A stretch of 64,000 bases of DNA from Theileria orientalis strain Shintoku. Its lineage: Eukaryota; Apicomplexa; Aconoidasida; Piroplasmida; Theileriidae. The notes below the pieces were generated by a model. It was not told where the DNA came from. It saw only the letters and a list, made by a program, of their open reading frames with translations, and did not search any database. A program made the translations under genes and the position numbers. Where the stretch lies: assembly GCF_000740895.1 (NCBI RefSeq), contig NC_025260.1:2150001-2214000 (forward strand). The letters run 5' to 3'. Numbering within the stretch: the stretch's first letter is position 1; every line of letters starts with the position of its first letter. Shown piece by piece: positions 57,402 to 58,024 of the stretch.

Positions 57402-58024
57402 ATGTTTTATCACAAACTAAAATGTTTACTTTTTTTGAAGCTCTTTGCTAGCAAAGTTTATTGTGTCGAAAACTGCTCAAACCTTTCTCCGGAATCTCTA
57501 CTGATTGGACACTACTGTTTATCTGTAAGCTTGTATCATAAATATTTCTTTTTGTAGACTTGCGATCATGTGTGTACTCAGCGAGTTTCTTTTCCTGGGA
57601 CCATAAGTTTGTTCATTATCTACTCACTTTACTTCAGACCTGCCTCTCTTTGACCATCCTCTGGTGAAATCAGGTATTTTATTTGGAATTATCCCCGTTT
57701 AGACTGCGAAGGTGGCAGGGGGCGTCTAATTTGTATGTCGACGAATCTCACACCTCACGGTAACACTCAAGTCAAATGAGCGCACGTAGGGTACCCTCTC
57801 TGTGAAGTTCTCAACCTCGAGTACTGCAAATCTAACATGTGTGCCTGCTGGTAGTTCGTTTAATTCAACTTAACTTTCAGGTCATCCTGCATATCGCACC
57901 AGTGTCCTCCCAGCTTCACTCCCAGGGAGAACCAGGTCACTAACACAGGTACCAACAACACTTAATATAAATAACACGTACAGGGTGTTTGGAAAGTAAC
58001 TTAAGAGTTTTATGCGTTTCTTAG
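57402..58024 (+). CDS. Cysteine-rich secreted protein in seven tiny exons
   Basis: No long frame exists here, but seven exons (57402-57524, 57558-57606, 57638-57673, 57703-57759, 57790-57850, 57881-57948, 57984-58024), separated by introns of 29-35 nt with GT...AG ends, chain perfectly to a 144-aa protein. It starts with a signal peptide (MFYHKLKCLLFLKLFASKVY). The mature part has 15 cysteines in about 124 residues (CVENCSNL, HYCLSTCDHVC, KSDCEGGRGRLIC, YPLCEVLNLEYC, MCACWSSCISHQC). I recognise no family. The density and pairing suggest a disulphide-rich secreted or surface module. Its TAG overlaps the stop of RPS26 on the other strand by four bases. Confidence 0.65.

What the first reader, a model, noticed from the sequence alone, without database searches (positions are those of the whole stretch)
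57402..58024. Hidden seven-exon cysteine-rich secreted protein
A region with no long frame resolves into seven exons of 36-123 nt and six introns of 29-35 nt, all phases matching. The product is a 144-aa signal-peptide protein with 15 mature cysteines. I know no matching family. Gene finders trained on longer exons would miss it. It is the best candidate here for an undescribed secreted factor.
Basis: partly seen in the sequence, partly recalled or inferred. Interest (0 to 1): 0.85.

Follow-up and report, generated by a model that had tools for sequence, protein, structure and literature searches.

The report
Conserved seven-exon secreted piroplasm protein
A real but easily mis-annotated parasite gene, cut into seven tiny exons, encodes a small, probably secreted, cysteine-rich protein that related blood parasites of cattle, horses and dogs also carry; its job is unknown.

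Summary
The seven exons and six 29-35 nt introns at 57402-58024 (+) are as stated and give a 144-aa protein. Of eight database relatives aligned to this DNA without preset exons, four (Theileria parva, T. equi, Babesia bigemina, B. gibsoni) recover all six junctions; the other four are mis-spliced or truncated models of the same gene. So it is not wholly hidden: databases hold it as a hypothetical, "secreted" or "signal peptide containing" protein.

One correction: the shared mature core has 14 cysteines in Theileria, not 15. C101 and C106 are both absent in the three Babesia proteins, which suggests they pair.

A new point: the mature chain looks like a tandem duplication of a six-cysteine module. 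Cysteine spacing repeats, and one intron lies at the same position and phase before the fifth cysteine of each half. Probable, not proven; residue similarity of the halves is uneven.

No Pfam, NCBIfam or PDB family matched, and fold prediction failed. I infer a soluble secretory-pathway protein with an extracellular binding role common to Theileria and Babesia. Presence in Babesia argues against a role specific to leukocyte transformation.

The parts
57402..57524 (+). exon 1: leader and first two core Cys (C25, C39), residues 1-41
   Evidence: start recovered from P0001 and P0005
57525..57557 (+). intron 1, 33 nt, phase 0
57558..57606 (+). exon 2, 49 nt (C43, C47)
57607..57637 (+). intron 2, 31 nt, phase 1
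57638..57673 (+). exon 3, 36 nt; the exon left out in database models P0002 and P0004
57674..57702 (+). intron 3, 29 nt, phase 1, 2 nt before the codon of C71 (fifth core Cys of half 1)
57703..57759 (+). exon 4, 57 nt (C71, C80)
57760..57789 (+). intron 4, 30 nt, phase 1, between the two halves
57790..57850 (+). exon 5, 61 nt, start of half 2 (C93, C101, C106, C108)
57851..57880 (+). intron 5, 30 nt, phase 2
57881..57948 (+). exon 6, 68 nt (C112, C117)
57949..57983 (+). intron 6, 35 nt, phase 1, 2 nt before the codon of C133 (fifth core Cys of half 2)
57984..58024 (+). exon 7, 41 nt (C133, C142), ends with stop TAG
58021..58426 (-). convergent neighbour, ribosomal protein S26e (RPS26); its stop (58021-58023) overlaps this gene's stop
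   Evidence: Pfam PF01283 on 58247-58426 and 58021-58182; overlap read
56229..57218 (-). divergent neighbour, clamp-loader (RFC-type) ATPase, part of the gene
   Evidence: Pfam PF13177 on 56229-56645; the piece 57103-57218 gave no Pfam hit at E <= 0.01, and its assignment is by eye

Best explanation
This is a real gene of Theileria orientalis Shintoku, the only matching locus found in its genome, with relatives in two other Theileria and three Babesia species. It encodes a small, soluble-looking protein (about 123 mature residues, 13.5 kDa) that enters the secretory pathway and is fixed by about seven disulfides in Theileria and six in Babesia. The mature chain is probably two copies of one six-cysteine module, C-x13/14-C-x3-C-x3/4-C-x15/23-C-x8-C. 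It most likely works as a stable extracellular or lumenal binding module, released from a secretory organelle, in a step shared by Theileria and Babesia such as erythrocyte or tick-cell invasion. Shown: the gene, its splicing (by homology) and the conserved cysteines. Inferred, about 75%: the duplication and the C101-C106 disulfide. Inferred, about 30-35%: the invasion or adhesion role.
For: Genome identity: 9,010,364 bases in 6 contigs equals the summed Shintoku lengths in PMC9323827 (passages; sum).

Homologues, identity to the window protein: P0001 T. parva 72%, P0005 T. equi 57%, P0006 B. bigemina 48%, P0007 B. gibsoni 47%, P0008 B. divergens 39%. Junctions: 6 of 6 recovered by four of the eight proteins aligned. 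Mature identity to T. parva is 97 of 123 against 7 of 21 in the leader.

Splicing: PMC7126163 (passages) re-annotated T. parva with RNA-seq, 12,172 of 12,296 introns supported genome-wide. That P0001 is a product of that re-annotation is inferred from its TpMuguga_01g tag and from its differing from the older XP_766500.1; this gene's own reads were not seen.

Duplication: the 12 mature B. bigemina Cys give intervals 14,4,4,24,9 and 15,4,5,16,9. A summed difference this small came up in 249 (random placement) and 287 (permuted intervals) of 200,000 trials; four of five intervals within one residue in 152 and 857 of 200,000. Introns 3 and 6 both lie 2 nt before the fifth-Cys codon in phase 1; chance of one exact coincidence 0.036, of one exact plus the other within 4 nt 0.005. 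hhalign of the halves gave P 0.0034.

Pairing: C101 and C106 are both present in the window, T. parva and T. equi proteins and both absent in the three Babesia proteins.
Against: The duplication tests were chosen after seeing the pattern; B. bigemina was used because it has just 12 mature Cys, and the Theileria pair C101/C106 was left out. Residue similarity of the halves is uneven: the number of 1000 full shuffles that reach the score is 4 in T. equi, 19 in T. parva, 83 in B. bigemina, 148 in the window protein and 667 in B. gibsoni; with Cys held fixed it is 8, 54, 214, 256 and 770. The hhalign probability is only 9.6%. Introns 1 and 5 are 4 nt apart in the module frame, with different phases. 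B. gibsoni has 15 Cys, three outside the shared set, so not every Cys can pair within the chain. The four proteins that recover the junctions may owe part of their models to homology-based annotation, so they are not wholly independent. The copy search scored only 2 candidates and takes no account of introns. Nothing here shows stage, location, secretion or binding; no T. orientalis transcript was examined.
Confidence: 0.6

Rival explanations
1. It is a factor secreted into the host cell or blood that acts on the host, for example a disulfide-rich modulator or inhibitor, rather than an invasion or adhesion component.
For: Small, soluble-looking, leader peptide, many cysteines. Such an architecture is common among exported parasite factors (general knowledge).
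Against: The mature protein is well conserved between species with different hosts (of 123 aligned positions 97 identical in T. parva, 76 in T. equi, 60 in B. bigemina, 61 in B. gibsoni), and one locus only was found in this genome. Host-directed factors often vary or multiply (general knowledge, inference).
Confidence: 0.25
2. It is a lumenal component of the parasite's own secretory pathway or of an organelle, acting in folding, sorting or as a subunit of a larger complex.
For: Good conservation and one locus found; present in both Theileria and Babesia.
Against: No ER-retention signal at the C-terminus: the full-length models end LCVS or LCVP. A folding helper might be expected outside piroplasms as well; the 8 proteins at E <= 10 among 405 candidates are all from piroplasms, though that search needs shared 5-residue words.
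Confidence: 0.25
3. It serves leukocyte transformation or the Theileria schizont in particular.
For: T. parva schizonts transcribe nearly all genes, 4011 of 4054 (PMC7126163, passage), which makes expression there likely but is not specific.
Against: Relatives occur in three Babesia species, which lack a leukocyte schizont (general knowledge).
Confidence: 0.04
4. The exon chain is a chance reading or a decayed gene.
For: Spliced frames of at least 144 aa arise in 6 of 150 shuffles, and the real sequence allows a 146-aa alternative.
Against: Proteins of four other species recover the same six junctions; 0 of 150 shuffles reach 16 Cys; the frame is intact.
Confidence: 0.01

Closest known systems
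TpMuguga_01g00979 (T. parva, P0001) and the older model XP_766500.1 (P0004)
   Same: The same gene: P0001 is 72% identical over all 144 residues with no gap and gives the same six junctions
   Different: P0004 leaves out exon 3 and departs after the position of intron 5
T. equi 'signal peptide containing protein' (P0005); B. bigemina (P0006); B. gibsoni BgAZ_108300 (P0007); B. divergens X943_001560 (P0008)
   Same: P0005 has all 14 core Cys; P0006 and P0007 have 12 of the 14; similar C-terminal end
   Different: The three Babesia proteins lack C101 and C106; P0008 also lacks C43 and C47 in a stretch where its model departs, between the positions of introns 1 and 3
T. orientalis MACJ_003497 (P0002, Fish Creek) and MACL_00003370 (P0003, Robertson)
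   Same: Same gene in other strains (prefixes tied to strains through a passage of PMC5921998, the Robertson one by elimination)
   Different: Short models of 100 and 80 aa
Small secreted cysteine-rich proteins of Apicomplexa in general (for example Plasmodium SOAP or CSS; recalled)
   Same: Leader peptide, many disulfides, soluble (recalled)
   Different: No sequence of these was compared here; no homology is claimed

Membership tests
Orthologue group of TpMuguga_01g00979 | End-to-end similarity with the same exon junctions | tested here: met
   P0001, P0005, P0006 and P0007 recover 6 of 6 junctions; alignment
Orthologue group of TpMuguga_01g00979 | Same gene neighbourhood (RFC and RPS26) in other piroplasms | not testable with these tools
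   no other piroplasm DNA held; one search states that G000 has no relatives here
Piroplasmid RAP-1 family | Signal peptide, then a cysteine-rich region and motifs within the first 300 residues, the rap-1 domain (PMC3505731, passage) | tested here: not met
   the whole protein has 144 aa; no Pfam match at E <= 10 for the window protein; that Pfam holds a RAP-1 model is recalled
CPW-WPC ookinete proteins | CPxxW and WPC motifs and a Pfam domain (recalled) | tested here: not met
   no such Pfam match; one W only (W109) and neither motif in the window protein
FAINT/DUF529 Theileria proteins | FAINT domain | tested here: not met
   no Pfam match for the window protein at E <= 10; that Pfam holds the model is recalled
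CFEM domain | Pfam PF05730 at or above its cut-off | tested here: not met
   seen only in B. gibsoni P0007, 12.8 bits against a cut-off of 22, E 0.12
Any solved fold | Structural match of a reliable model | tested here: inconclusive

The most novel reading that the evidence does not exclude
A fold new to structural biology and confined to piroplasms: a tandem pair of six-cysteine modules, born by duplication of an intron-bearing unit, that serves as a general extracellular ligand or complex subunit for host-cell or tick-cell entry and has been overlooked because its 36-123 nt exons break gene models.
Probability: 0.2. Interest if true: 0.6.

Novelty: new member of a known kind. Interest (0 to 1): 0.38.

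Why it matters
It gives the correct model of a probably secreted protein that several piroplasm annotations get wrong, and it outlines an unnamed family shared by Theileria and Babesia. A conserved protein of this sort is a sensible subject for basic study of how these parasites meet host or tick cells. It also shows how short exons can hide conserved secreted proteins in these genomes; no T. annulata or B. bovis protein, for example, was among the eight returned.

Tried and rejected
Paralogues: a six-frame search of the own genome with the protein returned only this locus, in three pieces. It scored 2 candidates and ignores introns, so a diverged copy in short exons could be missed.

Families and structures: 0 Pfam hits for the window protein. 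For the five relatives scanned, only DUF7949 (E 4.3, P0005) and CFEM (E 0.12, P0007) appeared, both below cut-off. NCBIfam gave 0 hits for the two proteins scanned, P0001 and P0005. PDB: one hit at E 0.9 (adhesion GPCR G4) and 0 for the profiles.

Literature: locus tags; topics. Passages of four papers were seen: PMC7126163, PMC9323827, PMC5921998, PMC3505731. For all others I saw listings and abstract starts only (one search listed 12 of 34). Supplements and most subscription journals were out of reach.

The chance or pseudogene reading was rejected. A PAN/apple-like cysteine pattern was considered from memory and dropped, because the C3-C4 spacing differs from what I recall and no Pfam hit supports it.

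Full report
What was checked. The window lies in a genome of 9,010,364 bases in 6 contigs. That total equals the sum of the Theileria orientalis Shintoku chromosome and organelle lengths given in PMC9323827 (passages; sum), so the organism is T. orientalis Shintoku (Ikeda genotype). The finding sits between an RFC-type clamp-loader gene on the minus strand (Pfam PF13177 on 56229-56645) and ribosomal protein S26e, also on the minus strand (PF01283 in two exons). The stop of RPS26 at 58021-58023 overlaps the stop of this gene at 58022-58024.

The gene model. Exons have 44.6% G+C and introns 32.4%, close to the Shintoku averages of 46.06% and 34.12% (PMC9323827). The introns are short beside the Shintoku average of 96.5 nt, and the exons are short beside the average of 373.2 nt. 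Keeping any one intron shortens the product to between 51 and 136 aa.

Chance. Chaining short exons is not rare enough to convince: 6 of 150 dinucleotide shuffles give a spliced frame of at least 144 aa, and the real sequence allows a 146-aa alternative with five introns. The cysteines are another matter: 0 of 150 shuffles reach 16, the best being 10.

Conservation settles it. Three protein searches returned eight different proteins in all. P0001 is T. parva TpMuguga_01g00979 (144 aa, 72% identity to the window protein). P0005 is a T. equi signal peptide containing protein (143 aa, 57%). P0006 is B. bigemina (48%), P0007 B. gibsoni BgAZ_108300 (47%) and P0008 B. divergens X943_001560 (39%; identities). 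P0002 and P0003 are short models of other T. orientalis strains, and P0004 is the older T. parva model. A protein-to-genome alignment with free GT-AG introns of 20-120 nt was run with all eight. P0001, P0005, P0006 and P0007 each recover all six junctions of the finding. P0008 gives 3 matching introns of 4, P0003 3 of 4, P0002 2 of 4 and P0004 2 of 6. P0002 and P0004 leave out exon 3, and P0008 departs between the positions of introns 1 and 3. The annotations may rest in part on homology to each other, so the four full agreements are not wholly independent. PMC7126163 (passages) describes a T. parva re-annotation from RNA-seq, with 12,172 of 12,296 introns supported across the genome. That P0001 comes from it is inferred from its tag and its difference from XP_766500.1; reads for these six introns were not seen.

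Anatomy of the protein. The N-terminus has the highest hydropathy in the protein. C21 is absent in T. equi and in the three Babesia proteins, so the shared mature core is 14 cysteines in Theileria (25, 39, 43, 47, 71, 80, 93, 101, 106, 108, 112, 117, 133, 142), not 15. In the three Babesia proteins C101 and C106 are both missing, which suggests that they bond to each other. P0008 also lacks C43 and C47, but in the stretch where its model departs. B. gibsoni has three Cys outside the shared set and 15 in all. The mature part is better conserved than the leader: 97 of 123 against 7 of 21 for T. parva.

A probable internal duplication. In B. bigemina the twelve mature cysteines are spaced 14,4,4,24,9, then 13, then 15,4,5,16,9. 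A match this close between the two halves arose in 249 of 200,000 random placements and 287 of 200,000 permuted spacings. Introns 3 and 6 lie at the same place and phase, 2 nt before the codon of the fifth cysteine of each half; introns 1 and 5 are 4 nt apart in that frame and differ in phase. One exact coincidence has a chance of about 0.036, one exact and one within 4 nt about 0.005. Residue similarity is uneven: 4 of 1000 full shuffles reach the score in T. equi, 19 in T. parva, 83 in B. bigemina, 148 in the window protein and 667 in B. gibsoni, and more with Cys held fixed. hhalign gives P 0.0034 but a probability of 9.6%. These tests were made after the pattern was seen. I rate the duplication at about 75%.

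What it does. No family matched in Pfam (for the window protein; two weak hits below cut-off for the five relatives) or NCBIfam (P0001 and P0005 only), and no convincing relative in the PDB. The structure models, of P0001 and P0005, are too poor to use, so the empty fold searches say nothing. One locus in the genome matches, in a search that scored two candidates. My best reading is a soluble, disulfide-fixed secretory protein with an extracellular or lumenal binding role common to Theileria and Babesia. Presence in Babesia, which has no leukocyte schizont (general knowledge), argues against a role peculiar to transformation. Stage, place and partner remain unknown.

Novelty. The sequence of the relatives is in public databases under hypothetical names, so the gene is not new. 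Whether the Shintoku annotation itself holds this gene could not be seen: P0002 stands for three member sequences that were not listed. Eight locus-tag strings gave no parasite paper, and no title or abstract start in the topic listings named this protein; those papers were not read beyond passages of four. The count of 14 core cysteines, the inferred C101-C106 bond and the two-module reading come from the calls here.

Noticed in passing
58021-58024: Tail-to-tail overlap of stop codons: TAG of this gene on + and TAA of RPS26 on -, sharing TTAG.
   Followed up: partly
58889-59659: Probably a second multi-exon gene on + (exons read by eye only); the frame 59348-59659 matches Pfam Eapp_C, E2F-associated phosphoprotein (E 2.6e-06, 28.1 bits against cut-off 25). 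The upstream frame 58962-59135 gave no hit.
   Followed up: partly
60054-63518: A 1154-aa open reading frame on + without any Pfam match at E <= 0.01.
   Followed up: no
protein databases: No T. annulata or B. bovis protein was among the eight returned, although T. parva was. A missing or mis-sized gene model is one explanation; the search also needs shared 5-residue words and a length of 0.55 to 1.75 times the query.
   Followed up: no
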